From assembly GCA_900318555.1 (NCBI GenBank), contig ONKX01000057.1, positions 1 to 33,145 on the forward strand: a stretch of DNA of 33,145 nucleotides, read 5' to 3'. The notes under the pieces are model-generated. The model saw nothing but the letters and a program-made list of their open reading frames with translations, searched no databases and had not been told where the DNA came from. The translations under genes and the position numbers were made by a program. This document shows positions 6,484-20,765 of this stretch, in pieces. This DNA is from an uncultured Prevotellaceae bacterium. GTDB lineage: Bacteria > Bacteroidota > Bacteroidia > Bacteroidales > Bacteroidaceae. The number at the start of each line of letters is the position of its first letter. Within the stretch, counting starts at the first letter, position 1.

Positions 6484-6486
6484 ATC

Positions 6487-6535
6487 GTTCAAAGTTCAAT
6501 GTTCAACGCTTAATGTTCAACGTTCAACGTTCAAT
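6487..6535. repeat. GTTCAAY heptanucleotide array between two GLUG genes
   Basis: Seven consecutive 7-base units (GTTCAAA, GTTCAAT, GTTCAAC, GCTTAAT, GTTCAAC, GTTCAAC, GTTCAAT) fill the whole space between the stop of the 921-residue gene (6531) and the ATG of the 1763-residue gene (6483). The array therefore occupies the ribosome-binding region of the downstream gene. Unit gain or loss would change the spacing between stop and start. Confidence 0.9.
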
Positions 6536-9296
6536 TTCTCTTCAGGTACTTATTCCCTTGATAGATATAGAGTCCTCTGGGAAGACCGCTGAACGGATTG
6601 TGCACGTCAGTCACCTTGCGCACCACACGGCCATGCATGTCGTAGACGTTATAATCTGTATGCTTCTGCAATGACGGCTTTTCCGCTGTGGGTACCTTGA
6701 TAGCCGTAGGATACGGATTGGTCTCCCTAACACCGAGATACTCAATATACAGATAAGGACGCAGATTTTCTCCAGGCTTTTTCTCATCTTCCGGTCCGTA
6801 AGCCACAGACTGCGCAAGAGCACCTTCGTCATCATAGACGAAGTAAATGCCATCTGTCAGATATGGCTGACCATCAATCATTTTTTCCGTAAGAATCTGC
6901 AGGAGACACTCGTTGGTGGCATCGAGAATAAAGTGCTCACGAGAAATGACCGCACCAGTGATAGAGTCCAGATCGATTAAGAGGGCATGGATGGTATTGG
7001 TCGCCTCGTCCACATATTCTATAAGAGTTTCTTCCTCATCTTCATCTGAGTCATCATGCTTGTACGTAGTACTATATTCCAGACTGATTTCGCCCGTAAC
7101 ATAGTTATGCGAATACACTTCGACGATTGTGGCATCGCGCTCCTCGTCGTATGTGGTACTGATGTTCCATTTAGTCTTTAGGATGTCATCGATGTTTTCC
7201 TGATAGGTGATGTTATTTTCGTCCTCGATGATGGTACGCGACACAAGTTCGCGGGAGTTGTCCCAGAGGGAGAGGGCGTATTCGTCGATTTGTTCATTCA
7301 TTCCAGACCAGTCATCAATCGTCTCTACTACTGGCTTTACCTTTTCAGGTGAGACGAGAAGGTATTCCGACTTTCTGAGAAAGGTCGAATCGGGAGAAAG
7401 CATATAAGACTCAAAGCTTAACAGCTCGCCTCCGTCCATGGGTTTGAACAGTTCAAATCCTTCATCAAATTCTTCATCAGAGACAATGCGTGTCACAATG
7501 TATGTGCGATCGAAATCCGCATAATCAACGGAATCTTTCTTGATGACTTCCTCAAAGGAAGTGCCTGAGGCGGCAATAGCGTCATCGTCGGAATAGCCGC
7601 CGATAATCTCTATCTCCCGTTCCTTCTCACTCAGCTCAATGCCGCCGTCCTCCGAAAGCTCTGACAATTGGACGCGACGCGGTATGGCATTCCACACAGT
7701 GGGAATGTCAGGGTTTGGCATGGCCTTAATGTCGGTGTTGACCACCGGAATGGGGTAGGAGTCATTCTGCGACATCATGAAGGTTGTCGAGTCACTTTCT
7801 TCATTAAGCAGCTCCAGCATATTGTATGTTGACATCATGTCACGACTGACTAACTTGAGACCATCGGCCTCGCCATGTGTGGTGAAACAGTGGCGGAATG
7901 TGGTGGTCGTCAGTTCGTCCGGCTCACCGTCCATGCTGTTGGTGGCAGCACCATAGCTGTTCAGGATGTGTCCGTATGGCAAACCGCATGCCATGGGGTT
8001 CCAGTGGCCTGCTGTCCTGATAGGAGATACGGACGCACAATTCTGGAAGGTGACGTGCTGGTCGGCATATCCTACGAGACTTCCGACATAGTTCTGGCCT
8101 TCCAATACGCCGAAACTGGCACAGTTGATGATGTCGCAATAGGCCGCATAACCCACGATACCGCCTACGCAGGCTGTACCCTTCATGGTGTTTTCAGCAT
8201 CGAAGATGAGGTTGGCAATGACGGCATGCGACTTGAGCGTTCCCTTAGCTACGCCCACGAGGCCTAAGCAGTCGATGCCCTGGAAGCAGTTGACGAGGCC
8301 GCGAATACGGTGTCCGTTGCCGTTGATCACGCCCTGGAACGGATGTTCGAAGGATCCTAAAGGCAGCATGGTGACTTCATTGCTGAATATCAGGTCGGAC
8401 TTGATGTCAATACCGATGTTACCGGGGATTTGACCTAACTGCACCATCTCAGCCAGGATACGCATCTCACTGGCATCGTAAACTTCGTACACCGAATGAT
8501 CTGCATTACTCTTAGGCTTGTGCAGTCCACACACGGTGCATTTGTCGTCCGCGCCAAAAACATGAGATTTGATGCTGTCTTTGCGTTCTATTTCAGAATA
8601 GGGACAGTGCTCGCAAATACGCAATTTGCCCATATTGGACAGACAGCTGGTATTGGTCGTAGCGCTTTCCTTCAGGCTGTGCTCCGTGTATTTAGGAGGG
8701 AGATAGATGGTGCTGTCAATGCCACAGACTGCGCATTTAGCCTCTTTTTCACCTCGTTGACCGCATATCGGTTCACGCAATAACCTCGTTTCGCTGAAAT
8801 CATGGACATGAATATACATGGCGTTGATGCCACCAGCCATGATACAATTTTTTGCGGAATAACTGGCTTCAAGAGTGATATAGTGCTTTCCGGCAGAAAG
8901 AGTGATGATATCTGAATTGATGTCAATTAAGTTCTTACCTTGACTAGTTTTGGCTATCTTATCATTTTTCGCAGTGAACTTAATTATACGGGTTCTACCT
9001 GGCGTCTTATCCTCTTCTACCATTAACTTGATGAAGACGTTGTATTCAAGGGTTGCCATTTTTCCGTTCGGAACAATGACGGAGAATATCATCGTGGCTT
9101 TCTCTGTCTTTTCTACGATTGTTAATCCTCCTTTTTCCGTTATCTGGAAGCCGTCTATCTCCGGCGTGGAGATAACAATCCCATCACTCGTAGTGCCGCC
9201 GTTGAAAAGAAACGGCTTCTTAATCCCGTAGCCAAAACTGCTGATGGAAAGGGAAAACAATAAAACGGTCAAAATATAAAAAAACTTCCTGCCCAT
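6531..9296 (-). CDS. GLUG surface protein with Cys knuckles and T9SS-like tail (921 aa)
   Basis: The start MGRKFFYILTVLLFSLSISS gives a signal peptide. Residues of about 25-165 form a beta-rich region. Between about 170 and 260 there is a Cys/His segment with CAVCG, CEHC and CTVCG pairs, similar to the Cys-rich segment of the upstream 589-residue neighbour. GLUG repeats follow at about 320-425 (GNGHRI, GGIVGYA, GSLVGYA). The remainder is acidic with no family I recognise. The final 35-40 residues (YNVYDMHGRVVRKV...GLPRGLYIYQGNKYLK) match the general form of a T9SS type A C-terminal sorting tail. I infer a surface protein from the same paralogous group as its neighbours. The stop codon lies inside the seven-base array that leads to the next gene. 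Confidence 0.85.
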   Translation of the reverse strand: MGRKFFYILTVLLFSLSISSFGYGIKKPFLFNGGTTSDGIVISTPEIDGFQITEKGGLTIVEKTEKATMIFSVIVPNGKMATLEYNVFIKLMVEEDKTPGRTRIIKFTAKNDKIAKTSQGKNLIDINSDIITLSAGKHYITLEASYSAKNCIMAGGINAMYIHVHDFSETRLLREPICGQRGEKEAKCAVCGIDSTIYLPPKYTEHSLKESATTNTSCLSNMGKLRICEHCPYSEIERKDSIKSHVFGADDKCTVCGLHKPKSNADHSVYEVYDASEMRILAEMVQLGQIPGNIGIDIKSDLIFSNEVTMLPLGSFEHPFQGVINGNGHRIRGLVNCFQGIDCLGLVGVAKGTLKSHAVIANLIFDAENTMKGTACVGGIVGYAAYCDIINCASFGVLEGQNYVGSLVGYADQHVTFQNCASVSPIRTAGHWNPMACGLPYGHILNSYGAATNSMDGEPDELTTTTFRHCFTTHGEADGLKLVSRDMMSTYNMLELLNEESDSTTFMMSQNDSYPIPVVNTDIKAMPNPDIPTVWNAIPRRVQLSELSEDGGIELSEKEREIEIIGGYSDDDAIAASGTSFEEVIKKDSVDYADFDRTYIVTRIVSDEEFDEGFELFKPMDGGELLSFESYMLSPDSTFLRKSEYLLVSPEKVKPVVETIDDWSGMNEQIDEYALSLWDNSRELVSRTIIEDENNITYQENIDDILKTKWNISTTYDEERDATIVEVYSHNYVTGEISLEYSTTYKHDDSDEDEEETLIEYVDEATNTIHALLIDLDSITGAVISREHFILDATNECLLQILTEKMIDGQPYLTDGIYFVYDDEGALAQSVAYGPEDEKKPGENLRPYLYIEYLGVRETNPYPTAIKVPTAEKPSLQKHTDYNVYDMHGRVVRKVTDVHNPFSGLPRGLYIYQGNKYLKRN

Positions 9297-9416: not shown

Positions 9417-11186
9417 TTACTGCTGTGACGCCGCTTCCGGCAACGTGGCATCCGATCCGCTGCCACAGATGGCCTCGAAGACATTCCCCGTCAGTGTTCC
9501 CTTGGCGTTGGTACCACAGATACCGCCGGCATAGTCGCGCACACCGCCAACCCATACGTTGCTTTCGGTGGTGCACTTGGAGATGGTGCCCTTGTTGAGT
9601 CCACAGATACCGCCGAGGTTCTTGCCCATATCTATCGAGCTCATCACAGAGAATATCACGTGACAGCTGTCAATGGTTCCACTGTTGACACCCGCGATGG
9701 CGCCGATATAGTCCCAGCCGCGCATGTTGCATGCAGCCATGCCCACGTTCTTCACGACGCCATCCTTGCCGATAGCACCGAAGAGTCCGCGATAGCCGCA
9801 GCCTGCCACGGGTTCTTCTGTCTGGAGCATCGTGATGACGTGACCGCCACCGTCGAAGGTTCCCTCGAATGACGTACTGTCAGTATCACCGATAGGTTGC
9901 CACGGCACTTTGACGAAGTCTTCGGCAATCAGGTCGTTGTCAAGACGGAAATGGGTCTTGGGACGGCGGTTGTTGACATAGTCGGCAATCCAGTAGAGGT
10001 TGCCGAAGGTCCTGACGACATAGGTGCTGTCGCTACCGGAATACTCCACAGCGGGACGCTCGTAGGGGTGCAGACACTTCTTGTTGGTGCAGAAGCCGTT
10101 GTCGTCGTAGCTATGGTCCGTGCCAGGCTCATTAAAGTATACCACATGGTAACACTGGCTGCAGGTATATTTCACGAGGGTGTTTTCGCAGTCCTGTCTC
10201 ACCACCTCGCGACGCTCCAGCGAATGGGGGAGTTTCTTGATGAATTGGCAGTCGCCGCAGTAAATCATGTGATAGTAATCGTCGACAGGCAACTTCTCCT
10301 TGCCAAAGTTCTTGTGCTGCGCCTTAATGACATAGTCACACACCAGACACCGCTGGTTGTGATTTCCCCAGTCAGCGGAATAGGTTGCCCATTTATGCTT
10401 CTCCGTAACCTCTTTTCCACACTCCTTACATTTCTTGTAGTGTACTGAGTCGGGGTCGATTTTGCCGGTTTTCTCGGTGTATTGCATCCATGCATCATGG
10501 CCATAGGCCTGCTCGAAGTGGTGGGGCTCTTGTATGGTGAGCTTGCAATCGTCAAGGCTGCAATAGTGCTCGTGCTCGAGGATGCTTCCGTTGGGCAATT
10601 TCCTGTACTGCGATTTGTGATTATGCCAGGTAAAGAGGAAGTAGCGTCCACCACCGGCATGACCGCCGCTAACGGTCTGATTCTTACCCGCCGTCGGCTT
10701 GCTGCTCCTGACCTCCGCCCACTTGAGCACGCGTTGGTTGAAATCTTGGTTGCCCGTATGGCTATAATAGACATGGTCCTGTTTAGGATATGCGCCTCCA
10801 TAAATGCTATAGTTGCGGCCGTTCAGTCCGCCATAATAGGTCTTGTCCAAGTGTGATTGTGCCTGGTAGTAGGGAGCCGGTATGTAATCCTTTTTCCCCT
10901 CATTGAACTCTTTGCCATAGGCATCCTTCCTATCTGCCGTTACTTTCACGTCGGTGATGTATTCTTTCGGGTTCGTACCGCTCTTAAATACGGCAAACAC
11001 GTAGCCACCGCCACGTCCTTTGCGGAAATCCAAATCGAAGTCACCTGCGCCATGATAGCCGTTAGCCTCGGGAGCAAGACTGTCTTTTTTCTGCACTGCC
11101 ACAACTTTAATCTCCGTTACAAAGCCTTGAGCCATGGCAGCGGTAGTGGATAGTGAAAAGAGAATAGTAAATAGTATTTGTTTCAT
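9417..11186 (-). CDS. GLUG surface protein with five CxxC-type knuckles, no sorting tail (589 aa)
   Basis: I place the start at ATG 11186 (MKQILFTILFSLSTTAAMAQ, a signal peptide); the in-frame TTG at 11195 is less likely. The middle has repeated Cys pairs at about residues 252 (CKECG), 279 (CLVC), 309 (CGDC), 342 (CSQC) and 369 (CTNKKC), which look like a string of metal-binding or disulphide knuckles. GLUG motifs run from about 445 (FDGGGHVI) to the end (GLFGAIG, GAIAGVN, GGICGLN, GGICGTN). The protein stops right after the last GLUG repeat and lacks the C-terminal tail of the two larger neighbours. The stop lies next to a GTTCAAT unit and a REP-like element, so the tail may have been lost there. 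I infer a secreted protein of unknown function. Confidence 0.85.
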   Translation of the reverse strand: MKQILFTILFSLSTTAAMAQGFVTEIKVVAVQKKDSLAPEANGYHGAGDFDLDFRKGRGGGYVFAVFKSGTNPKEYITDVKVTADRKDAYGKEFNEGKKDYIPAPYYQAQSHLDKTYYGGLNGRNYSIYGGAYPKQDHVYYSHTGNQDFNQRVLKWAEVRSSKPTAGKNQTVSGGHAGGGRYFLFTWHNHKSQYRKLPNGSILEHEHYCSLDDCKLTIQEPHHFEQAYGHDAWMQYTEKTGKIDPDSVHYKKCKECGKEVTEKHKWATYSADWGNHNQRCLVCDYVIKAQHKNFGKEKLPVDDYYHMIYCGDCQFIKKLPHSLERREVVRQDCENTLVKYTCSQCYHVVYFNEPGTDHSYDDNGFCTNKKCLHPYERPAVEYSGSDSTYVVRTFGNLYWIADYVNNRRPKTHFRLDNDLIAEDFVKVPWQPIGDTDSTSFEGTFDGGGHVITMLQTEEPVAGCGYRGLFGAIGKDGVVKNVGMAACNMRGWDYIGAIAGVNSGTIDSCHVIFSVMSSIDMGKNLGGICGLNKGTISKCTTESNVWVGGVRDYAGGICGTNAKGTLTGNVFEAICGSGSDATLPEAASQQ

Positions 11187-11189
11187 AAC

Positions 11190-11217
11190 GTTCAATGTTC
11201 AATGTTCAACGTTCATT
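11190..11217. repeat. GTTCAAY heptanucleotide array between MACPF and GLUG genes
   Basis: Four tandem 7-base units (GTTCAAT, GTTCAAT, GTTCAAC, GTTCATT) make up nearly all of the 30-base gap between the TAA of the last MACPF gene (11219-11217) and the ATG of the first GLUG gene (11186). It marks the border between the two halves of the gene train. Confidence 0.85.
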
Positions 11218-13214
11218 TACTTATGTTCAAAATCCGGTTTGCGCCAGAGCAACGCCTGGCCGATAAGATCCTGCGTCAACAGCGTGAAATGGTCTTCTTT
11301 GGGGTTGAGGATGAAAATACCGTGTTGGTTGGTATTGTCGTCCTTGACGACAAACCGCTTGTATTTGAAGAATAGCGGCACGTCATTCTCCTGGATGCGC
11401 GACGGACCGAAGACCTGGCCGGAATTGTACATGAACTTTATAATATTGTTGAGCTTTCCCGTCGCAGCGACCTCATAGCCCACGGGGACATCTTTGAGCA
11501 GGGTGCGGATGGTATTCATGGCCGACTTGTTCTCACTGGTGCTGGCCAACACGCCCTGGTGCAGATAGAAGGGACCAATCTTCATGTTGGCCGTGCAAGT
11601 GTCGTTCCACATGTAGATGGCAGCCTCACTGATATTGTTGTCGCCGGCAATGACGTAGTTCTGGTTCTCCTTGGGCGAGATATCGATGTCGCCATTATTA
11701 TAGTAGATGTAGTCGTCGTAGTTGAGTCGTACCAAGGGGGTGACGTAGGCCTTGGCCTGGAACTCCTCTCCGGGGAGATAAGACCACGTGATGGTGAACA
11801 GGCTGTCGTCACTGCAGCGACGGCCCAGACCCTCACGACACATCTTGCCACCGAGGGTGGGGTAGAATACGGTGTATTCGACGTTCTTGACATACTCGTC
11901 GACAATCTCGCCGATAATCTCGTGGTCGATTTCTACCTTCGTGGTGGTAGAAGGGTTGGTGAGCTTGAGGGCGGAGGTAGGTATCTTGGCATATATCTGC
12001 TTCCTGACGCGGGGCATGACGTCGGTCTCGTGGACGATGTACTTGCCGACCATCAGGTTGTATAAGTTGGCCACCTGCGGATCGACGATCAGGTCGGCGA
12101 TGGGGGCAACCTTGATGTCGATGAGCTCCACGTTGTTGTCGTCCTTGTTGCCGCCAGGGGTGAACTTGAGCGACTTGAACCACTGGTCAACCACTTGGCT
12201 CTTCAAGGTCATGTTACTGCTGTCGTGCATTCCTGCCAGCTGCAGGGCGAGGGCACTATTGCCACCGAGAGCCTCAACGTGGGTCTCGCGGTCTGTCTGC
12301 GTTTTGGTCACCCAGTCCTGTGTCTCCGTACCGTCTTTGCCTCCGACGCAATAGAGGAAGGTAGCACCGGCCTGCTTGTCGACCGTTTCGCGTGAGTCGG
12401 TGACATGGCGGTTCATCGTGGTGCTGAGCTTGATCTTGCCGCCCAACTGGGCATGATAGATGATATGTGTGCCGTAGGTCTGGAGCATATTCTGAATGAT
12501 GCGCTGCGCCTCGGTAAGATTGTTTTCATTGATGGCTTTTGAAGCCAGCTGCTGATAGCGGAGGAAGCCCTGGGACAATGCCTCGGGATGCTCGCGGGCA
12601 ATATATAAGAGGTCATAAGGCTCCATGTGGCGCGAAGCTACGGTCAGACCATCGTTAATGATGCAGAAAGCAAACTCGTTGCTCGTCAAATCGGTCTTGT
12701 TGAAGGTTGTCGTGGCCTCAGCCTGAAACAGGAGTAAATCAACCTTCACCGATGACTTACGGGTAAGCTTCTCGCAGATGGTCGTGGCATCCGTGCCGCT
12801 GTAGACATGATGGAAGGACGAGGGAGAGACGTCGTCGACCAGGGTCGTTGAGCCATGTTCCTCATCGAACTTCTTTATATACTCCATATCGATGACACGG
12901 TCGCGCACCTCGTCGTAGTTACTATACTTTCCGGTACCGTTATAACCGTAACCCACACCGTAACTGCGATAAAGGTCGCCGATGTATGCCATACGCTGGG
13001 CGGCATGTACTCTCGTCCAGTACTCCTCGGTGTAGTCGCCATAGGCGTTGGCAGGATCGTATTCCTCCAATACCGTTTGAAGGTCATCTTCGCGCGAGCA
13101 GGATGTGAAGAGTGAGGATTGCAGGATGAACAGTGCTGCCAACAGCACATTCGCCGACATTCCTATTGTTACGCCCGTCCGTCTCATTTCTTTGTTCGTG
13201 TTCATATTTGTCAT
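11217..13214 (-). CDS. MACPF-domain lipoprotein 6, with C-terminal extension (665 aa)
   Basis: A long basic N-region and hydrophobic stretch end in the lipobox FTSC (Cys near residue 39), so it is a predicted lipoprotein. The MACPF domain spans roughly residues 60-410. It holds the shared GVGYGY start motif and a full MACPF signature, YGTHII...QLGG, with the Gly at residue 248 and the His at 250. An LGGN motif and the W...P...I.P closing segment follow. The last 240 or so residues form an extra beta-rich domain absent from the first four paralogues and could be a receptor or glycan-binding module. MACPF proteins form membrane pores in immunity and in Bacteroides antagonism (BSAP toxins). Its ATG lies 3 bases after the stop of MACPF 5; an alternative ATG is at 13205. 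Confidence 0.85.
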   Translation of the reverse strand: MTNMNTNKEMRRTGVTIGMSANVLLAALFILQSSLFTSCSREDDLQTVLEEYDPANAYGDYTEEYWTRVHAAQRMAYIGDLYRSYGVGYGYNGTGKYSNYDEVRDRVIDMEYIKKFDEEHGSTTLVDDVSPSSFHHVYSGTDATTICEKLTRKSSVKVDLLLFQAEATTTFNKTDLTSNEFAFCIINDGLTVASRHMEPYDLLYIAREHPEALSQGFLRYQQLASKAINENNLTEAQRIIQNMLQTYGTHIIYHAQLGGKIKLSTTMNRHVTDSRETVDKQAGATFLYCVGGKDGTETQDWVTKTQTDRETHVEALGGNSALALQLAGMHDSSNMTLKSQVVDQWFKSLKFTPGGNKDDNNVELIDIKVAPIADLIVDPQVANLYNLMVGKYIVHETDVMPRVRKQIYAKIPTSALKLTNPSTTTKVEIDHEIIGEIVDEYVKNVEYTVFYPTLGGKMCREGLGRRCSDDSLFTITWSYLPGEEFQAKAYVTPLVRLNYDDYIYYNNGDIDISPKENQNYVIAGDNNISEAAIYMWNDTCTANMKIGPFYLHQGVLASTSENKSAMNTIRTLLKDVPVGYEVAATGKLNNIIKFMYNSGQVFGPSRIQENDVPLFFKYKRFVVKDDNTNQHGIFILNPKEDHFTLLTQDLIGQALLWRKPDFEHK

Positions 13215-13217
13215 CTA

Positions 13218-15416
13218 TCAAAACTTGTTGATCGTAATATAAATCGGGAAGAATTTAAAGAACTCCTGACTGGAATAGTTGAATGCACTGACATACTCCG
13301 GGTAGTCGAGCAGCAGGTCGGTTCCTGAAGCACTGACACGCATGATGCGCGCCTCGCCTTCATCGCTTGTGACAACAGGGAATCCGCTGGCATCATTCTG
13401 CTGCCAGGTGATGGCCATCGTCGGTTGATCGGGATGTGAGAGTACCCAGTAGCCGTTAGGCCAGTCCAATCCGAGCATGTTACGGCCATCAAATTCGTGG
13501 CTGTAGAAAATGCTCATGCGGTTGCCCAGCATCTTGGTGATGCTCTGCGACTCCATGACCGAGGGCAGGTAGTCCTCCAGGCCGATGGCCTTGACGGAAT
13601 TGCTCACAGCATCAGCCCATCTCAGGTGGCCGTCCTCGTCGCCAGTACGCTCGTCGGCACGCTTGATATGGTCGCCTCCGTCTATCAGGGCGAACCAGTA
13701 GCCTGCGCTGTTCTTATAGAGTGTTCCGTTATAATCTTTATATCTTCTCTTGGCGAACTCCACAAATGCAGAGTCTTTCTCCCAGTATGTGCGCATGTTG
13801 TCATTCTTCAGCGCTACCGGTTTCACCGACCAGAAGGTGCTGGCGACCTTCGCAAAATTCATCGGCTCAGCAACAACACTGGGTTGTTCGGTGAAGACGA
13901 CAGACTGATAATTCAAAAGCTGCTCTTTCTTGGTAGGACAGGGGATTGGCTGAACGGCTCCCCAGTAGAAGTACAGATTCTTCAGCCTTTTCGTCTTCTG
14001 GTCGAAGAGGTTTCTAATATAGGTGGTGTCGCTCTCAGCGTGGATGCTGTCGTTGGGGATGTATGTCGATGCACTGCCTTGCCAGATGACGCGTCCCGGA
14101 CGGTGGTTCTCATCGCCTACGAACAGTCCGGAATACAGGTAGGGACGCATATTGCCGTCTTTACCTTTAATCAGCGGATAAGCCACGATACAGGTTGAGT
14201 CGCTGCGAATGGAAGGAACATACTCCTTACAGATGATACAGGCTTTGTTGGAATCATTATAGATGACTCTCACATCCTGACCATAATTGCCCTCTACCGG
14301 TATGGTACCGTAGGGAGCCTCGTAAATCTCCTTTGTGGGGGCTTCTTTCTTCAGGTAGGTCTCAAAGACCTTGCGCATCACCTTACGGGTGGTAGCATTC
14401 TCAAAGAGCTGGTAGTATGGCAGGAAACGGCCGCTGACGAAGGAGGCGTTGTAGTTGTTGGGCTCAATACTGATATTGTTGGCCCAGCCATAGTAGTCGC
14501 CATCGCCGATTTTCTTGGCAGCGGCACTCTTATGGTCGAAAGTCCTGTGAAGCTTGGCACAGTCTTCACTGTCGCCACCCTTGACCTTGATTTCGCCTTC
14601 GTACTGAACGGTGTTTCTGACGAGTTTCTCGATGACCTTAGAGGGGGGAGAGGTTGTTACAACATCCTTGCCAAAGAGGGTTTCTGTCACCTGATTGATC
14701 GTATAACTCTTATCTACGCAGGAGTCGCGTTCGATTTGCATCGTCAGCTCAATCATACCGCCCAGATTGGAAGACACGACGAGGTGTGTGCCGAACTTCT
14801 CGGAGAAGGTGACGGCATCAGCTTCGGTGATACCGTTCTCGGTCTTGGCGACTAGTTGTTTGACAGCCTGACGGAAGTCTGCCGCGAGGATGCTGTTATT
14901 GTTATCCAGCTCGTCCAGATTCAGACATTGCAGCATGCCGACATCCATGGTCATGGTGGCCATGATGTGCTTGATGAACATGTGGGCTTTATAGCTGTTG
15001 TGCCAGATGGTCCTGGAAAACACATTGTTCTCACGGTAATACTTACCAGTTGCGATGGCACCGGTTTCGTCGATGGTGTACTTGGTCTCAGAATGTCCCA
15101 TCTCCTCCAGGGTGTTGCCGCTGAAGATGTCCATGGACGTATAATGGCGTCGCTCGGAATTGATGATGAGTCCTAACGTTGCCTCGTAGGACCTGAGACG
15201 TTCCATGTTGACGATGGGGGAGGTGGAGAAGTACTTGTCGTCCATCACGCTGCCGGCGGCGTTGTAGGCATAGCCTAAGCGCTGCAGTTTTATCTGTTCG
15301 GCCGAATAGGTTCTAGTCAGATCGTCGTAGCTCACATCACTGTCCTTCAAATCATCGGAACAGGAAATGAGGAGAAGGGCGAAAAGAATATAAAGGTATT
15401 TATTCATATCAGTCAT
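13218..15416 (-). CDS. MACPF-domain lipoprotein 5, with large C-terminal extension (732 aa)
   Basis: The N-terminus MNKYLYILFALLLISCSDD (from ATG 15407, or MTDM from 15416) is a lipoprotein signal with Cys in LISC. The 15416 start overlaps the upstream stop by 8 bases. A MACPF domain fills about residues 40-390, with the signature FGTHLVV...NLGG (Gly at 209, His at 211) and a KGGD motif. About 330 residues follow that I do not recognise. They contain WG, WQG and GLDWPNGYWVLSHP stretches, are rich in Tyr and Trp, and are plausibly a beta-rich binding module. Its MACPF core is the most divergent of the set. I infer a pore-forming or accessory subunit anchored in the outer membrane. Confidence 0.8.
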   Translation of the reverse strand: MTDMNKYLYILFALLLISCSDDLKDSDVSYDDLTRTYSAEQIKLQRLGYAYNAAGSVMDDKYFSTSPIVNMERLRSYEATLGLIINSERRHYTSMDIFSGNTLEEMGHSETKYTIDETGAIATGKYYRENNVFSRTIWHNSYKAHMFIKHIMATMTMDVGMLQCLNLDELDNNNSILAADFRQAVKQLVAKTENGITEADAVTFSEKFGTHLVVSSNLGGMIELTMQIERDSCVDKSYTINQVTETLFGKDVVTTSPPSKVIEKLVRNTVQYEGEIKVKGGDSEDCAKLHRTFDHKSAAAKKIGDGDYYGWANNISIEPNNYNASFVSGRFLPYYQLFENATTRKVMRKVFETYLKKEAPTKEIYEAPYGTIPVEGNYGQDVRVIYNDSNKACIICKEYVPSIRSDSTCIVAYPLIKGKDGNMRPYLYSGLFVGDENHRPGRVIWQGSASTYIPNDSIHAESDTTYIRNLFDQKTKRLKNLYFYWGAVQPIPCPTKKEQLLNYQSVVFTEQPSVVAEPMNFAKVASTFWSVKPVALKNDNMRTYWEKDSAFVEFAKRRYKDYNGTLYKNSAGYWFALIDGGDHIKRADERTGDEDGHLRWADAVSNSVKAIGLEDYLPSVMESQSITKMLGNRMSIFYSHEFDGRNMLGLDWPNGYWVLSHPDQPTMAITWQQNDASGFPVVTSDEGEARIMRVSASGTDLLLDYPEYVSAFNYSSQEFFKFFPIYITINKF

Positions 15417-16608
15417 CTTCGTAGTTACGTAATGATTTATCCATGTAGTTTCTCAGTATGTTACGTGCCTTGGCATCGTATACCACCTCGTAGATAGGCA
15501 CCAGGCGGATATCGATCAGTGCCGCATCCTTCGGAGTCACCGTTGACTGCCATTTCTTCAAGGTCAGCGAGTCTATCTTTGCTTCCTGACCAGTGGTGAA
15601 GGCCGTCACGAGTGATACGTCACCACCACGGGCGGTGATATGGCTCTCTGAATTGCGGTTACACTTCTCGGCAGCATCCTTATATTCGGTACTGATCTCG
15701 GTACGGATGTTGACAAATTTTATCTGAACAGACAACTCCAGAGCCACCTTCACGTCGAGTGAATTAGACACGGAGTCCATGGATGTCGTGTTGTAATAGT
15801 CCAGCGAGCAACCTAAGACGGAACGTCTCACGAAACCAGAACCAATCTCTTCGATAAATTCGCGGCAGTAACCGCTGGCTGTATATGCTGAAGAAGCAGA
15901 ATGGACCTTCCGGACAAACTTCTGCATCACACTAGCGAATCCAGGGGCGTAGACCTCTTTAAAGAGGGGTACAACCTTGGCCAGTGAGTCTGCGTCAATG
16001 CTGACATAGGTGTCGGCTACCGATGAGGTGGCTACGGCATGGGAAACCAGCTCACGCAGGTTCAGGTAGTTGAGGTCGCGCGAGAAATAGCTCTGCTTCA
16101 GGCGCATCAACGAATAGTAGCTCTTCTGGGTAGAGAAGCTCTTCTTGTTGAAGGCTACATCCAAATCGACCGAGAACATACCTGCGCTAAAACCTAAACC
16201 GATGTCGAGCGCCAGGGAATCTTTCAGGGACTTGACGCTGGTGCTGTAGAAGAACTTTTGCTCGGTAGCGGGATTGTAGTCGTCGACAAGAAAGGAGGTA
16301 TTGTACTTCTTTTCCATATCGCGCAGGTTACGCATATTGAACACCTCCATATCGGTACCGACACAGTAGGACTCATTATCCCTGTAGGTGTAGCCGGCAC
16401 CACGGATGGCGTTGATGTCATCTTCAACTTGCTTAATATCTTCAGGGGTATAGGCCCTGGCAAGCCACGATATGGGCGCGTAACTGACTTCGGAGTCGTC
16501 GGCAGCCTGAGATGTCTCAGGAACGACGGGTATATCCTCGTCATTGCTGCACGATGCCATCGCCAACATGCCTGCTGCTATATATAAATATAATAAGGTG
16601 TACTTCAT
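15409..16608 (-). CDS. MACPF-domain lipoprotein 4 (399 aa)
   Basis: The signal MKYTLLYLYIAAGMLAMASC ends in the lipobox MASC. The rest is essentially one MACPF domain. It has GAGYTY near residue 70 and a glycine/hydrophobic alternating stretch (LDIGLGFSAG) where the first membrane-inserting segment would lie. A conserved MRLKQSYFSRDLNYLN segment follows, and then a degenerate signature, IGSGFVRRSVLG (Gly at 256), in which the usual Thr-His is replaced by Ser-Gly. The RGGD motif and the closing W...P...I.LVPIY segment are present. It has no extra N- or C-terminal domain. The start lies 21 bases after the upstream stop. I infer a structural or accessory subunit of the same assembly. Confidence 0.85.
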   Translation of the reverse strand: MKYTLLYLYIAAGMLAMASCSNDEDIPVVPETSQAADDSEVSYAPISWLARAYTPEDIKQVEDDINAIRGAGYTYRDNESYCVGTDMEVFNMRNLRDMEKKYNTSFLVDDYNPATEQKFFYSTSVKSLKDSLALDIGLGFSAGMFSVDLDVAFNKKSFSTQKSYYSLMRLKQSYFSRDLNYLNLRELVSHAVATSSVADTYVSIDADSLAKVVPLFKEVYAPGFASVMQKFVRKVHSASSAYTASGYCREFIEEIGSGFVRRSVLGCSLDYYNTTSMDSVSNSLDVKVALELSVQIKFVNIRTEISTEYKDAAEKCNRNSESHITARGGDVSLVTAFTTGQEAKIDSLTLKKWQSTVTPKDAALIDIRLVPIYEVVYDAKARNILRNYMDKSLRNYEDD

Positions 16609-16629
16609 ACTTAATTCCTGTTTTCTTGC

Positions 16630-17733
16630 CTATTTCGTCCCATTCGTACGCAAAATGTAATTCACACGGTCTTGCACCTTACCCGTGAAGAGGTTGGCCA
16701 TGGATGCTATCTTTACGTCGGTGAGTGCACACAATTTCAATTTGTCGCTTTCGGGAGTGGGAGGAAAATTGACACTTTCCATCCACTCCTTGATGCCCTG
16801 GGGAGCGGGGTTGACTCCTGACAAAATCTCGGTGACAGCCTGTACATTGCCACCGCGGACATGGATGTCAAGGTTATAGCGGTCACGGGATATCTTGCTG
16901 AACTGCTCGGTCTGTTCGCTGGTCGATGCCTCGACACCGACGAGGAGTCCAATGCTGGCATTGAGTGCCACGCCGGCACTCATGGTCTCGGTGAGTGAAG
17001 ACTTCTCGATCTGCAATGTATATTCCAGCACGCCACCCATGAACGAACGGGCTACGAAGCCGCGACCCCACTTGTTCACGAAGTCCAGAACCATCTTGTT
17101 GCTGACATCTCCCTCCTTGACGTTGTTGCCCTCAAGCAGTTTCCAGTCGGCATAGAAGCCTGGTGCGAAGACCATGCTGTCGCCCGTTTCCTTGTAGTAC
17201 ATGATGACATTCTTATACTGAAGGTCACGGCAGTAAGCCACGCGCTTGGTGCGCTTCATGGCAAACACCGACTCGCTTTCCTTTACACTTCCCTTGGAAA
17301 AGTTACCTGTCACGCTGATGTCAGCCACGATAACATTGACGCCAACACTTGCAGACAGAGCCAACTGCTTGGACACCGCTTCGCGTGTCTCACCGGTGAT
17401 AATCTGTTCCTCACTATACGGCGTATAATCGTCGCTGACGAAGTTCAATCCCTTGACATACTGGATGGAGTCCAGATAATTGAGGTTGAAGATGTTGAAG
17501 GCCACTCCTTCCAGATATTCAGCACCTGTGGCATAGGTATAGCCTACTGCCAGCAGCCGGGAAACATAGCCTCCTGAAGGTTCCGATCCGTTTACATTAG
17601 GTGCCCCGGAGGCACCATTACGGCCGTAAAGAGCCAACATCTCTTCCTCTGTCAATGGGTCGTCACTGCTACAGGAGACCATTCCAAGCGCACAGGCAAG
17701 AAGGAGAAAACAAAATATACGGTTCATCTTCAT
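16630..17733 (-). CDS. MACPF-domain lipoprotein 3 (367 aa)
   Basis: The smallest paralogue. The signal MKMNRIFCFLLLACALGMVSC ends in the lipobox MVSC, followed by SSDD. The MACPF domain starts around the GYTYATG motif near residue 64. It has an alternating small/hydrophobic stretch (SASVGVNVIVADISVTG) typical of a membrane-inserting hairpin region, then MKRTKRVAYCRDLQYKN, which is conserved with MACPF 2 and 4. The signature is degenerate: WGRGFVARSFMGG (Gly at 223), with Arg-Gly in place of Thr-His. RGGN occurs in the C-terminal part. The spacing to the next gene downstream is 21 bases. The role is inferred from family and context only. Confidence 0.85.
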   Translation of the reverse strand: MKMNRIFCFLLLACALGMVSCSSDDPLTEEEMLALYGRNGASGAPNVNGSEPSGGYVSRLLAVGYTYATGAEYLEGVAFNIFNLNYLDSIQYVKGLNFVSDDYTPYSEEQIITGETREAVSKQLALSASVGVNVIVADISVTGNFSKGSVKESESVFAMKRTKRVAYCRDLQYKNVIMYYKETGDSMVFAPGFYADWKLLEGNNVKEGDVSNKMVLDFVNKWGRGFVARSFMGGVLEYTLQIEKSSLTETMSAGVALNASIGLLVGVEASTSEQTEQFSKISRDRYNLDIHVRGGNVQAVTEILSGVNPAPQGIKEWMESVNFPPTPESDKLKLCALTDVKIASMANLFTGKVQDRVNYILRTNGTK

Positions 17734-17760
17734 CTTATACTCTTTGATTATCAGACATTC

Positions 17761-19161
17761 TTACTGTCCTAATTTTAAATTAAAGTAGCTCTTCAACACT
17801 TCGTGGGCATCGGCATCGGCAATGAGTGCATAGATGGGAATCAGCGCCATGTCAACCATCACGGCACGGGTGGGAGTACAGCTGTTCTGCCAAGCAGTGA
17901 CTTCACTGTCAAGCAGTACGCCGCCTGTGACAAGGATACACACCTGGCTCACATCGCCGCCACGCACCTTGACAGTCGCCGTCGTCTTACTCATCAATTC
18001 CTTGCCTTCTTTGGACACGCTAATGTCAATCATTCCCGCACCGCCAACATCCTTACCCTTTATCTTGGTCTGGAAGCTAGCCTCAAGGGCCACCTCGACG
18101 CTCAGCGTGTCACGGAGCAACGTGCTGTCAACGCTGATCTGATAGTCGAGCACTGTGCCCATCGCCGATTTGCTGATGAAGCAAGGACCGATCTCATCCA
18201 GGAACGCGCTGCAGATGTCATACTGCTTCGTCTGATTACCTTTCGCAGCAGCAATGTCCTCGGCAAATTTCTCCTGAACGGAGAGGAAACCCGGCGACAG
18301 CAGCTTCTGCTTCTCCTCACGCGTGGTGGCCTTTTCCAACAGGGCCATGACGTTCATATAATGAATCTCGCGCGTGAACTGAGTATTTTTCAGACGCTTG
18401 AGGGCGTACTTGTTCTTTGACTTCTCCTGATGACCTTTTCCTACACCAACATCAACACCGCCGCTACCACTGCCCTTGCTCTTCACCGAACCAAAGTTCA
18501 TGCTGGCCGAAGCGTTGACAGTAAGGCCTTTGATAAGCTCCTCCTCACTGTCTGCTGTGAGAAACTCTTGGGCGGTCTGCGGGAATATGTCATCGGAAAT
18601 CAGCCTGACACCAGTGGCTTGCTGGATGCTGTCGAGCGTGACAAGGTTGAACAACTGGATCAGGGCACCGTCGCAATAATCGCCACCGGGCATATAGCTA
18701 TAACCGGCACCTTTATTGGCGGAGAACACCGTCGAGACGGAGTCTAGCGTAGGATTGCTCGACTGGACGATGGACATATTATACTGGCTCTCTCCACCAG
18801 CTCGCGTGGCAGCCTCCTGGGTCGTGAGCGTCAGCACATTCTCGCGCATTGCTCCCCAGTTCTCACCCACCTGAACGAGAGCTGTAGTAGGACCTTCGCC
18901 AACCGACGGATAGACATTCGCCAAACCTTTCGAAGTTGCTACAGACCACTTGCCCGGCACGTTGATGAAGGCTGTATACTCCCCATAGGAGGCGCCTGTA
19001 TTCATGACGCCTTGCCCGGAAGTCCCGAGAATAGCAAACGGAGCATTGCTCTCGTTGCTAGTCCCCTCATTGCCTATCATATCCTCGCTGCTGGAGCATG
19101 CCACCGCCAAAGCTGCAGCAAGCAACAGCACCGGGTAAGATATGTTTCTGTTCATATTCAT
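17761..19161 (-). CDS. MACPF-domain lipoprotein 2 with BACON-like N-terminal domain (466 aa)
   Basis: The signal MNMNRNISYPVLLLAAALAVAC ends in the lipobox AVAC. Residues of about 40-120 form a BACON-like beta domain (INVPGKWSVAT..., then GENWGAMRENVLTLTT), a fold usually placed before catalytic or binding domains in Bacteroidetes surface proteins. The MACPF domain follows from the GAGYSYMPGG motif. It has a Gly/Ser/Lys-rich first hairpin (GSGSGGVDVGVGKG), KRLKNTQFTREIHYMN, a degenerate signature IGPCFISKSAMG (Gly at 325, Pro-Cys replacing Thr-His) and RGGD. The ATG overlaps the upstream TGA as ATGA, which suggests coupled translation with MACPF 1. I infer an outer-membrane-anchored subunit. 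Confidence 0.85.
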   Translation of the reverse strand: MNMNRNISYPVLLLAAALAVACSSSEDMIGNEGTSNESNAPFAILGTSGQGVMNTGASYGEYTAFINVPGKWSVATSKGLANVYPSVGEGPTTALVQVGENWGAMRENVLTLTTQEAATRAGGESQYNMSIVQSSNPTLDSVSTVFSANKGAGYSYMPGGDYCDGALIQLFNLVTLDSIQQATGVRLISDDIFPQTAQEFLTADSEEELIKGLTVNASASMNFGSVKSKGSGSGGVDVGVGKGHQEKSKNKYALKRLKNTQFTREIHYMNVMALLEKATTREEKQKLLSPGFLSVQEKFAEDIAAAKGNQTKQYDICSAFLDEIGPCFISKSAMGTVLDYQISVDSTLLRDTLSVEVALEASFQTKIKGKDVGGAGMIDISVSKEGKELMSKTTATVKVRGGDVSQVCILVTGGVLLDSEVTAWQNSCTPTRAVMVDMALIPIYALIADADAHEVLKSYFNLKLGQ

Positions 19162-20645
19162 TTAAGGTCGCTTAAGTCTATCGTAAGCTCATTCCCGTAT
19201 TTGCTCTCGTCTAGAGAGAAACTCTTGTCAATATATTCTACAAGATATTCGCGCGCTTTAGCCTCGTCACTTTCGGCCACAGAACCATCGAAGATGTCGT
19301 AGATAGGATGTACCTGCATGCCCACCATGGCAGCCTTCTCAGGCTCTGCGCCGAGCATCCACTGGGCCAGGTCGGTACAATTGAGTGAGCCGCCAGTGGC
19401 CAGGATGTTAACCAACTGGACATCATTGCCGCGAGCCTTAACCTTTGCCCTGGTAGAGGAGGCTGCGTTGAATTGGGCATCGGTCACCTGAACATTGCCG
19501 CTGAAGAAGAAATTCTTCAGTTTGGTGCTATCCTTCATCTGCTCAAGAATCTTAGCCTTGGTGACAGAATCGACACCAGTTGTATCCTTAATTTGCTGCT
19601 GCCACTTGAAGTCGAGAGCGGCCTTCACATCAGTGCTCTTAACAACCTTCGAAGAGTCAACAGTCATACGGTAGTTAAGCTCGCAGCCTAAAAGACATTT
19701 TGTAATGAAATGGGTACCTACGATTCTGAAGAACTCGTCGGCTGCAGCCTTCTTCTTGGTTGAATCCTCTCCGGCTGCTTTAAACTGACTGATGAAGAGT
19801 TTCTTGTAATACTTGTAGCCCTCACTGTAGTTAGCGTCGTTAAACCAAGCCTTTTCCCAAGCAAGCTCACGACTGTACATCGAACGTGTCAGCGACTTTT
19901 GTACGACAGTATGTCCAGTATGCGATACGCGGTTTACGTTCACGTCACCAGACAAGCCCAACTTGACAGATCCGAAGTTTCCGCCAGGATTGCCTTTCAC
20001 GGCAACCAGTTTGTCCATCATACTGTCGCTGGTGTGATAGAAGTACTCCTCCTTGGTCTCTGGTGCAAAGTCGTGCTTGACAAGCGAATCAATCTCGTTC
20101 ATGGCCTCCATTCTGAAAATCTGAATGCCAGTACACAGTTCTGCAACAGGACTCTTCGTCCTCTGGTAACCGTAGCCGACAAAGACATTGGAGTTTACAA
20201 CCTTTTTGAATCTTTCAATGCTTGTAAGTGCATCCTGAGTCACCGTCTGCGTACCATCGCCGGCACGGGTGAATGCTCCGTCTTTGCTGAGGAACTTCAC
20301 GTTGTAAGACAACTGACGGTTCTCTGCCCAGTTGTTACCGATCAGCACCGGAACGCGGGCACTGCCTTCACCGTACATCTTGGTAGGAGTGAACTCCATG
20401 TTGTCAGCGGTCTCAATATACCAAAGGCCATCGGTCTTGATATTCAGATAATACGTGCCTTGGTCAGCAGACACACTTGAGATTGCCTGACCACTTGCAT
20501 CGGTCAGCACAGAAGAATACATGGGGATGTCAAAATTAAGCTCGTTAATACCGGACTCACCCTCAGCAAGGTTAGCGTCTGAACAAGCGGTAAAGGCTGC
20601 TAAAGCCATTACAGCTATAAAGAATTGTTTCGTCATTTTTTTCAT
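19158..20645 (-). CDS. MACPF-domain lipoprotein 1 with BACON-like N-terminal domain (495 aa)
   Basis: First gene of the MACPF train, about 83 bases downstream of the predicted transcription start. The signal MKKMTKQFFIAVMALAAFTAC ends in the lipobox FTAC. A BACON-like domain covers about residues 30-125 (IKTDGLWYIET..., GNNWAENRQLSY). The MACPF domain follows from GYGYQ, with MYSRELAWEKAW in the middle and an intact signature VGTHFITKCLLG (Gly at 310, His at 312). RGND and the closing W...P...HPIYDIF segment follow. A Gly/Val stretch (GNFGSVKLGLSGDVNV) sits where the first membrane hairpin is expected. With MACPF 2 it forms an ATGA-coupled pair of the same domain plan. I infer a pore-forming subunit exposed at the cell surface. 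Confidence 0.87.
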   Translation of the reverse strand: MKKMTKQFFIAVMALAAFTACSDANLAEGESGINELNFDIPMYSSVLTDASGQAISSVSADQGTYYLNIKTDGLWYIETADNMEFTPTKMYGEGSARVPVLIGNNWAENRQLSYNVKFLSKDGAFTRAGDGTQTVTQDALTSIERFKKVVNSNVFVGYGYQRTKSPVAELCTGIQIFRMEAMNEIDSLVKHDFAPETKEEYFYHTSDSMMDKLVAVKGNPGGNFGSVKLGLSGDVNVNRVSHTGHTVVQKSLTRSMYSRELAWEKAWFNDANYSEGYKYYKKLFISQFKAAGEDSTKKKAAADEFFRIVGTHFITKCLLGCELNYRMTVDSSKVVKSTDVKAALDFKWQQQIKDTTGVDSVTKAKILEQMKDSTKLKNFFFSGNVQVTDAQFNAASSTRAKVKARGNDVQLVNILATGGSLNCTDLAQWMLGAEPEKAAMVGMQVHPIYDIFDGSVAESDEAKAREYLVEYIDKSFSLDESKYGNELTIDLSDLK

Positions 20646-20734: not shown

Positions 20735-20765
20735 CAAAGATAGCAAATTTTATCCCCAAAAACAA
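20735..20765 (-). promoter_or_regulatory. Promoter of the MACPF/GLUG gene train
   Basis: On the minus strand a -7 element TATCTTTG (20742-20735) matches TAnnTTTG exactly. It is preceded by TTG (20765-20763) at a 20-base spacing, which fits the Bacteroidetes housekeeping promoter form. The predicted start lies near 20728, leaving a leader of about 83 bases before the ATG at 20645. I saw no other equally good promoter within the train, though I did not score every site. Confidence 0.75.

What the first reader, a model, noticed from the sequence alone, without database searches (positions are those of the whole stretch)
11217..20645. Six consecutive MACPF lipoproteins in one operon
Seen: six adjacent minus-strand genes, each with a lipobox signal and a MACPF domain (G-x-G-Y start motif, a GTH-type or degenerate signature, RGGD-like motif, closing W...P...IP). 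Joints are ATGA, an 8-base overlap, or 3-27-base gaps. Known: MACPF proteins form pores; Bacteroides BSAP toxins are single MACPF proteins. Inference: six co-expressed, divergent paralogues suggest a hetero-oligomeric surface pore or attack complex comparable in logic to complement C6-C9, or a toxin bank with several targets.
Basis: partly seen in the sequence, partly recalled or inferred. Interest (0 to 1): 0.85.

Follow-up and report, generated by a model that had tools for sequence, protein, structure and literature searches.

The report
Six-subunit bacterial surface pore-protein operon
Prevotella-type gut bacteria carry a conserved operon for six different relatives of our own complement and perforin pore proteins, which looks like one many-part surface attack machine rather than six separate toxins.

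Summary
Six adjacent minus-strand genes (A-F, 20645-11217) encode lipoproteins with MACPF domains. Five pass Pfam's cut-off; B is tied in by profile comparison.

The six are old, distinct lineages, not recent copies. The order A-B-C-D-E-F recurs complete in 22 of 24 other Prevotella-type loci (some near-copies); the other two are cut or split at contig ends. The only Bacteroidetes-type promoter motif lies upstream of A, and the gene run continues into three secreted proteins (to 1192).

Related loci in the same genus carry three MACPF genes (b, f, e): 16 of 25 read. In the 12 analysed the three diverge in lockstep. A-D group with b (no C-terminal domain), F matches f, E matches e. Twelve of the 16 sit beside a lipoprotein with a legumain-like (C13) protease, as do two six-gene loci.

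Best reading: a hetero-oligomeric surface pore/attack complex, a six-part elaboration of a three-part system. It works like complement or the multi-component CDCL toxins without belonging to either. Subunit A is exchanged between operons by recombination. Assembly, pore formation and target are inferred. Both AlphaFold models had low confidence, so no structural test was possible.

The parts
20735..20765 (-). Bacteroidetes-type promoter motif TTG-N20-TATCTTTG upstream of A
   Evidence: Only match to TTG-N18-23-TAnnTTTG on the minus strand of 1000-23300. Within 200 nt upstream of A in 16 of 22 rows, against 1 of 22 (B), 0 of 22 (C), 0 of 21 each (D, E, F). That this is the Bacteroidetes consensus is recalled.
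19158..20645 (-). A: MACPF lipoprotein, class I (N-terminal domain + MACPF, no C-terminal domain); most variable of the six, exchanged between operons
   Evidence: PF01823 E 5.6e-6; 21 of 21 rows match at E up to 1, best 7.3e-10; mean aa divergence 0.419, highest of the six; no double-acidic signal in 21 of 21 rows
17761..19161 (-). B: MACPF lipoprotein, class I
   Evidence: hhalign to A 1e-42, D 2.3e-36, C 1.9e-29; 10 of 23 rows match PF01823 at E up to 1; best match of the 'b' profile among A-F, 3.2e-22
16630..17733 (-). C: MACPF-only lipoprotein, class I
   Evidence: PF01823 E 5.5e-8; most conserved of the six, mean divergence 0.216
15409..16608 (-). D: MACPF-only lipoprotein, class I; both putative membrane-hairpin regions show alternating hydrophobicity
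   Evidence: PF01823 E 5.6e-9
13218..15416 (-). E: MACPF + ~370-residue C-terminal domain lipoprotein, class III
   Evidence: PF01823 E 4.2e-10; best match of the 'e' profile among A-F, 7.8e-37; its C-terminal domain matches that of e, 1.3e-13
11217..13214 (-). F: MACPF + ~270-residue C-terminal domain lipoprotein, class II
   Evidence: PF01823 E 2.1e-9; phmmer to 2qp2 1.5e-4; best match of the 'f' profile among A-F, 2.5e-31
9417..11195 (-). G: putatively secreted protein of unknown function, conserved after F
   Evidence: Homologue after F in 21 of 22 loci, L045 being cut before it, and in 13 of 13 re-fetched loci; no Pfam family over its cut-off
6531..9296 (-). Putatively secreted protein with a borderline GLUG motif and a weak T9SS-like C-terminal tail, conserved after G
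   Evidence: GLUG 20.0 bits against a cut-off of 20.5; Por_Secre_tail E 0.048, not significant; TIGR04183 E 0.017, under cut-off; found in 13 of 13 loci
1192..6492 (-). Large putatively secreted protein, last gene of the run
   Evidence: Flg_new_2 25.3 bits, cut-off 23.6; homologue at the right place in 11 of 13 loci; L070 ends before it and L082 has no hit in the 1.45 kb that follow

Best explanation
The operon encodes one hetero-oligomeric, cell-surface MACPF complex with six non-redundant subunits, used for antagonism by pore formation. It is an expanded form of a three-component MACPF system (b, f, e) found in the same genus and in one genome of another Bacteroidales family. Proposed working: the two subunits with C-terminal domains (E, F) bind or nucleate on the target surface. 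The subunits without such a domain (A-D, relatives of b) are recruited and form most of the beta-barrel wall, as C9 does after C5b-8 and CDCL-S after CDCL-L. A is the variable subunit that sets compatibility or target range and is exchanged by recombination. The three secreted products act with it at the surface. Shown: MACPF homology by sequence, lipoprotein signals, conserved order, one promoter motif, purifying selection, class structure, lock-step divergence of b/f/e, exchange of A. Inferred: physical complex, assembly order, pore formation, target, proteolytic activation.
For: Order: A-F complete and in order in 22 of 24 non-window loci; L045 is cut in C, L046 has A in two frames at its contig start. 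All 19 of 398 same-genus genomes with full-length B (own included) show the other five on the same contig: 14 in the window or fetched loci, 5 (G115, G220, G258, G291, G385) from places, where E and F are named by place and length and A of G220 is cut. Identity: in a 73-row MACPF tree each of A-F (5 rows each) is one clade at 100; b and f have 99, e only 21; b+A+B+C+D lie on one side of a branch with support 94. Correspondence: among A-F, b is best with B, f with F, e with E, and E/e and F/f similarity extends into the C-terminal domain. Co-divergence of b, f, e over 12 loci: r 0.94, 0.96, 0.97; 0 of 2000 permutations as high for each. Promoter motif almost only before A. dN/dS 0.11-0.26 in 12 comparisons. 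Two or more acidic residues after the lipid cysteine in 22/23 B, 21/22 C, 19/22 D, 22/22 E, 20/20 F rows (two F rows without a recognised lipobox dropped). Exchange of A: window against L038/L039/L042 is 95-100% identical in most 250-base bins over C-G but 59-82% over A, flanks 91-95%; AU test rejects window+L038+L039+L042 on the A tree, p 5e-22. Precedent: two-component CDCLs with a MAC-like mechanism (PMC11169675, sections 6 and 17 read).
Against: No structure: AlphaFold models of B (pLDDT 33) and E (pLDDT 47) are unusable; fold search did not run. Hairpin analysis is mixed: alternation exceeds shuffles (p 0.013 or less, 12 tests, uncorrected) for A CH2, C CH2, D CH1, D CH2, E CH2; borderline for B CH2; not for A, B, C, E CH1 or either F region. 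A lacks the double-acidic signal in 21 of 21 rows; E and F are also fairly acidic at the control positions (1.45 and 1.75 of 5), so for them the signal is less telling. b is closer by profile to e (2.8e-27) than to B (3.2e-22), and f to e (6.1e-36) than to F, so classes are not cleanly separated by profile alone; the tree carries long-branch warnings and was a quick search. Co-conservation does not prove one complex, and lock-step divergence partly reflects shared descent. No immunity gene was identified; only Pfam scans of neighbours bear on this. G067 has D and part of E on a 3.2-kb contig without full-length B, a fragment or a partial set. A Bacteroides MACPF protein, BACUNI_00959, is reported without antimicrobial activity (PMC4999547, passage).
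Confidence: 0.6

Rival explanations
1. A bank of six independent BSAP-like toxins with different targets, co-transcribed for convenience.
For: Each is a lipoprotein with a MACPF domain; Bacteroides BSAPs act as single proteins (PMC12853789 abstract, PMC4999547 passages). A is highly variable and exchanged.
Against: A-D have no C-terminal domain, the part that binds the receptor in BSAP-1 (PMC12853789 abstract and section 9). The set keeps its order in 22 of 24 loci, whereas an independent bank should gain, lose and shuffle members. b/f/e co-diverge at r 0.94-0.97 in 12 loci.
Confidence: 0.13
2. A non-toxic surface assembly (adhesion, nutrient capture or envelope scaffold) that uses MACPF domains as oligomerising modules.
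For: Three large putatively secreted proteins follow in the operon. BACON matches occur in 11 of 11 b proteins at E up to 1, and the class I profile matches carbohydrate enzymes at its N-terminal part, 8va4 5.7e-6 and 3zmr 1.7e-4. Hairpin amphipathicity is not uniform. The abstract of the 3KK7 structure paper suggests a role in adaptation to the gut (PMC2954219, search listing).
Against: Patchy presence (19 of 398 genomes, many of them incomplete MAGs), exchange of A and the C13-protease neighbourhood of related operons fit antagonism better than a core envelope function. Several hairpin regions keep a pore-like pattern.
Confidence: 0.2
3. An anti-predator or anti-eukaryote weapon, for example against rumen ciliates, with the same hetero-oligomeric pore mechanism.
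For: 11 of the 22 named loci come from records with RUG names, rumen MAGs (recalled); the A-D profile resembles eukaryotic perforin and complement and insecticidal MACPFs.
Against: No direct evidence of target. The B. fragilis CDCLs and the BSAPs in the papers seen act on bacteria (PMC11169675, PMC12853789). The habitat of the window's genome was not shown.
Confidence: 0.07

Closest known systems
Two- and three-component CDC-like toxins (CDCL) of Bacteroidota (PMC11169675)
   Same: Adjacent genes for homologous but distinct lipoproteins; reported MAC-like mechanism with a long platform subunit and short wall subunits; reported need for a surface protease.
   Different: CDCLs were collected by PF01289 and described as single, paired or triple adjacent genes; here the domain is PF01823, six genes in three classes, and PF01289 was not significant.
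BSAP antimicrobial MACPF proteins of Bacteroides (PMC4999547, PMC12853789)
   Same: Lipoproteins with a MACPF domain; E and F have the BSAP order MACPF then C-terminal domain. The 2025 survey pooled PF01823 proteins of Bacteroidota as BSAPs, and by that usage A, C, D, E and F would count.
   Different: Characterised BSAPs act as single proteins. That survey found 20 of 214 representatives without a C-terminal domain and left open how those with neither end domain bind receptors; in this operon such proteins (C, D, and A, B with an N-terminal domain) are encoded with C-terminal-domain partners.
Complement membrane attack complex C6-C9
   Same: Several distinct MACPF subunits, here thought to build one pore; the class I profile matches C6, C8 beta and C9 by sequence.
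   Different: No complement accessory domains by Pfam in A-F; bacterial lipoproteins in one operon.
Three-gene MACPF operons b, f, e found here (16 of 25 loci read; L103 in another family)
   Same: E corresponds to e, F to f, A-D to b.
   Different: One class I gene instead of four; gene order varies (b-f-e, or b-e-acc1-f). 12 of 16 have acc3, the C13-protease lipoprotein, next to them, which most six-gene loci lack beside the operon.

Membership tests
MACPF superfamily (PF01823) | MACPF domain by curated profile or profile homology | tested here: met
   5 of 6 over cut-off; B by profile-profile and 10 of 23 rows at E up to 1, best 3.2e-12; class I profile hits solved MACPFs
MACPF superfamily (PF01823) | MACPF fold in a predicted structure | tested here: inconclusive
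   B and E models too poor (pLDDT 33 and 47); A, C, D, F not modelled; fold search not run
BSAP | Lipoprotein with acidic surface-export signal, B-F | tested here: met
   B 22/23, C 21/22, D 19/22, E 22/22, F 20/20 rows
BSAP | Lipoprotein with acidic surface-export signal, A | tested here: not met
   0 of 21 rows have two acidic residues in the five positions; the mean is 1.00
BSAP | Encoded as one gene | tested here: not met
   Six genes in fixed order in 22 of 24 loci; whether one suffices is untested
BSAP | Known C-terminal domain class (DUF5648 PF18885, or PF20779/PF20785) | tested here: not met
   None appears for E or F at E up to 1; sequence only
BSAP | Kills related Bacteroidales | not testable with these tools
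   Needs experiment
CDCL | PF01289 domain | tested here: not met
   Only E 0.051 for B, under the cut-off; 2 of 23 B rows at E up to 1
CDCL | Adjacent lipoprotein paralogues | tested here: met
   Six adjacent lipoproteins, more than the two or three described
CDCL | Activation by a surface protease | not testable with these tools
   A C13-protease lipoprotein neighbours 12 of 16 three-gene loci and two six-gene loci, and a gene of that type lies elsewhere in the window's genome; activation not shown
Complement MAC | Several distinct MACPF subunits in one pore | not testable with these tools
   Distinct subunits shown; one pore not shown
Complement MAC | Accessory TSP1/LDLa/EGF-type domains (recalled) | tested here: not met
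   No such Pfam family in A-F at E up to 1

The most novel reading that the evidence does not exclude
A bacterial membrane attack complex built from six obligate, specialised MACPF subunits on the producer's surface: E and F as target-binding platform, A-D as a mixed barrel wall, A as an exchangeable specificity subunit, armed in at least part of the family by a dedicated legumain-type protease. It would have arisen by expansion of the wall subunit of an ancestral three-part machine, independently of vertebrate complement.
Probability: 0.35. Interest if true: 0.93.

Novelty: new variant of a known kind. Interest (0 to 1): 0.82.

Why it matters
In the papers seen, bacterial MACPF toxins of this phylum are one-protein systems and the related CDCLs two- or three-protein systems. 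A fixed six-subunit set, with a three-subunit relative that co-diverges, makes it testable how and why MACPF rings become hetero-oligomeric, a question studied mainly in vertebrate complement (recalled). It also suggests an answer to a gap stated in the 2025 BSAP survey: MACPF lipoproteins without a receptor-binding domain may be partner subunits, not incomplete toxins. Exchange of one subunit in an otherwise near-identical operon suggests an arms race in Prevotella.

Tried and rejected
Structure prediction of B and E: low confidence, so no fold claim is made. Fold search was attempted three times and the machine was busy.

BACON domain in A and B: considered because b proteins match it (11 of 11 at E up to 1, best 3.8e-9) and the combined class I profile, which contains b rows, matches carbohydrate enzymes at its N-terminal part. 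Pfam gave no BACON for window A or B. Trimmed N-terminal domains of A and B match each other (5.6e-7), but B against b is not significant (0.12) and A against b is weak (0.005). It is therefore not claimed.

MACPF in b by Pfam: only 4 of 11 at E up to 1, best 8.2e-4; b is placed by profile comparison and tree.

C-terminal domains: E against F directly is not significant (0.47); E-e 1.3e-13, F-f 2e-6 and e-f 3.2e-10 are.

Iterated profiles for b, f, e ran together into one general MACPF family; classes were then assigned by length, order, tree and hhalign. F and f are not resolved as sisters in the tree; the link rests on hhalign.

Of 16 three-gene loci, 12 were used in the tree and correlation; L083, L086, L091 and L095 were left out, before seeing their effect.

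C13 protease as a fixed part of the six-gene system: rejected. Among L035-L056, acc2-acc3 lie directly upstream of A in two (L052, L055; L069 and L070 are the same contigs). In the contig of L054, acc1 copies lie upstream and acc2-acc3 about 15 kb away. 9 of 19 six-gene genomes have a C13 match over cut-off, some short. acc2-acc3 pairs also occur with no MACPF hit in the stretch fetched (L109-L111). Among the 16 three-gene loci acc3 was not seen in L077, L083, L098 (stretch or contig ends) and L086.

Sigma-70 and terminator scans: 24 against 20.3 +/- 4.4 and 22 against 17.2 +/- 4.2 in shuffles, so unused.

Single-sequence amphipathicity was replaced by ortholog-averaged values; both are weak and the hairpin limits were set by eye.

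Module correlations without near-identical pairs (198 of 210 kept) are modest: E-F 0.68, G-tail2 0.57, B-G 0.47, E-G 0.43, A-B 0.41, C-D 0.28. They could reflect linkage alone and are not relied on.

AU tests: groups were named after seeing the distances; quick trees, LG+G4. For B the five-row group is not rejected (p 0.28).
Full report
OBSERVATION. Pfam MACPF is over the curated cut-off in five. B misses Pfam in this genome but is a relative of A, C and D at 1e-42, 1.9e-29 and 2.3e-36; 10 of its 23 rows match MACPF at E up to 1, best 3.2e-12. A joint profile of A-D and b (22 rows) matches solved MACPFs: 2qp2 1.5e-15, perforin-1 1.6e-9, C8 beta 2.1e-9, C6 1.3e-8, C9 1.4e-6. Profiles of single subunits gave weaker or no significant matches to solved structures. 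In the window's genome PF01823 gives four places, all in this cluster. The signature region is kept in E and F (GTH...LGG), partly in A, and changed in B-D (sequence).

CONSERVATION. A search with B returned 22 loci from records titled Prevotella, Prevotellaceae or Bacteroidales. 22 show A-F complete and in order; L045 is cut in C and L046 has A in two frames at its contig start. G and the next gene follow in 13 of 13 re-fetched loci, the last gene in 11 of 13. In the genus sample 19 of 398 genomes (own included) have full-length B and all six genes on the contig: 14 read in the window or in fetched loci, and 5 inferred from places. G067 shows D and part of E on a 3.2-kb contig without B. In a family-level sample of 399 genomes only the own genome has full-length B; G622 gave two weak hits, which led to a three-gene locus. 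dN/dS is 0.11-0.26 in two comparisons per gene.

ONE TRANSCRIPTION UNIT. The motif TTG-N18-22-TAnnTTTG lies within 200 nt upstream of A in 16 of 22 rows, against 1 of 22 (B), 0 of 22 (C) and 0 of 21 each (D, E, F). With corrected A starts it is in 17 of 21, window included, and absent in L035, L037, L048 and L051. On the window's minus strand between 1000 and 23300 the only match, spacer up to 23, is at 20765-20735. Median gaps between the six genes are 12.5-29.5 bases over 20 loci. No transcript data were available.

SUBUNIT CLASSES AND A THREE-GENE RELATIVE. PF01823 was found in 59 of 398 same-genus genomes. Of 25 loci read, 16 hold three MACPF genes: b, f and e. BACON matches occur in 11 of 11 b proteins scanned. 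In a tree of 73 MACPF domains (301 columns, quick search, long-branch warnings) each of A-F is one clade at 100; b (99), f (99) and e (21) each lie on one side of a branch; and b with A-D is one side of a branch at 94. Among A-F, the best profile match of b is B, of f is F, of e is E, although b and f are each closer still to e. E/e and F/f similarity extends into the C-terminal domain. Over 12 three-gene loci the pairwise distances of b, f and e correlate at 0.94-0.97, 0 of 2000 permutations as high; this is the strongest sign that the three act together, though shared descent contributes. The six-gene operon is thus four class I genes (A-D), one class II (F) and one class III (E). In an order-level sample 65 of 393 genomes had some match to the e profile, mostly short; near full-length only in G1100 of another family, where L103 holds b, e, f with acc1-acc3. 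Two more genomes hold two or three MACPF genes with acc3 (L104, L105).

ACCESSORY PROTEASE. acc3 joins an ANF receptor-like domain (3.2e-6) and a C13 peptidase domain (7.8e-52) in the one member scanned. A profile of it matches next to 12 of 16 three-gene loci. It lies directly upstream of A in two six-gene loci (L052, L055) and about 15 kb away in the contig of L054. The window's genome has such a gene on another contig. CDCLs are reported to need a surface C11 protease (PMC11169675, section 17), so proteolytic activation is a fair hypothesis, not a result.

EXCHANGE OF SUBUNIT A. Against L038, L039 and L042 the window is 95-100% identical in most 250-base bins over C-G (a few bins 81-94%), 59-82% over A and about 80-93% over B, changing near 17.5-17.75 kb; flanking genes are 91-95% identical. 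The window's A is nearest L040/L041 (84%), whose C-F are 63-79%. Holding window, L038, L039 and L042 together on the A tree is rejected (p 5e-22), and window with L040 and L041 on the E tree (p 2e-76); for B the five-row C-F group is not rejected (p 0.28) (groups named after seeing distances). A is the most divergent of the six (0.419 against 0.216-0.338, 21 rows). It is also the only one without two acidic residues after the lipid cysteine (0 of 21 rows; B 22/23, C 21/22, D 19/22, E 22/22, F 20/20). What such signals mean is from PMC5080379 (passages).

MECHANISM. Shown: MACPF homology by sequence, lipoprotein signals, fixed six-gene set, one promoter motif, three classes, co-divergence in the three-gene form, exchange of A. 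Inferred: that E and F dock or nucleate, because the C-terminal domain carries receptor binding in BSAP-1 (PMC12853789, abstract and section 9); that A-D form the wall; that the product is a pore. Ortholog-averaged alternation of hydrophobicity in the two putative membrane regions exceeds shuffles for D (both), A CH2, C CH2 and E CH2, is borderline for B CH2, and fails for A, B, C and E CH1 and both F regions. That suits unequal roles but is weak.

LITERATURE. Searches of the held open library for MACPF with Prevotella, Bacteroides and operon (15), gene cluster/paralog (37), BSAP/rumen (38), C13 (90), rumen (91), BACON domain (123) and heterooligomer (125) showed no listed paper on an operon of four or more MACPF genes, judging from titles and abstract starts; two searches listed only the top 20 of 283 and 25 of 80. 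Opened: PMC11169675 (outline, sections 6 and 17, passages), PMC12853789 (outline with abstract, section 9, passages), PMC4999547 (passages), PMC5080379 (passages). The library lacks most subscription journals.

LIMITS. The two structure jobs gave unusable models. Nearly all comparison loci look like MAG contigs. Rumen origin rests on record names and recall.

Noticed in passing
L078:12187-14394 (acc3) and 10993-12156 (acc2); also L063/L064, L079, L081, L084, L085, L087, L089-L091, L093-L095, L097, L099, L103, L104: Loci with one to three MACPF genes are often followed by a lipoprotein pair, acc2 and acc3; acc3 joins an ANF/ligand-binding domain to a C13 legumain-type peptidase. The pair also occurs with no MACPF gene in the stretch fetched (L109-L111).
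   Followed up: partly
window 19158-20645 and L038/L039/L042: Subunit A (with part of B) is replaced by a divergent allele in operons otherwise 95-100% identical over most of C-G, with flanks only 91-95% identical: C-G looks homogenised between species while A is swapped.
   Followed up: yes
window 19158-20645: A alone lacks the double-acidic export signal in 21 of 21 rows; it may not be surface-exposed like B-F.
   Followed up: partly
window 20892-21920: A Y1 (IS200-like) transposase-type gene, Pfam match below cut-off (E 0.0026), sits between the operon promoter and an LPG-synthase-like membrane gene. In L038, L039 and L042 the LPG gene lies next to A in the opposite orientation.
   Followed up: no
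L094 (G385:C12) and G385:C64: One genome (G385) carries both a six-gene and a three-gene MACPF operon.
   Followed up: no
L052, L054, L108: Runs of acc1-type lipoprotein genes lie upstream of some six-gene operons, four in a row directly before A in L054.
   Followed up: no
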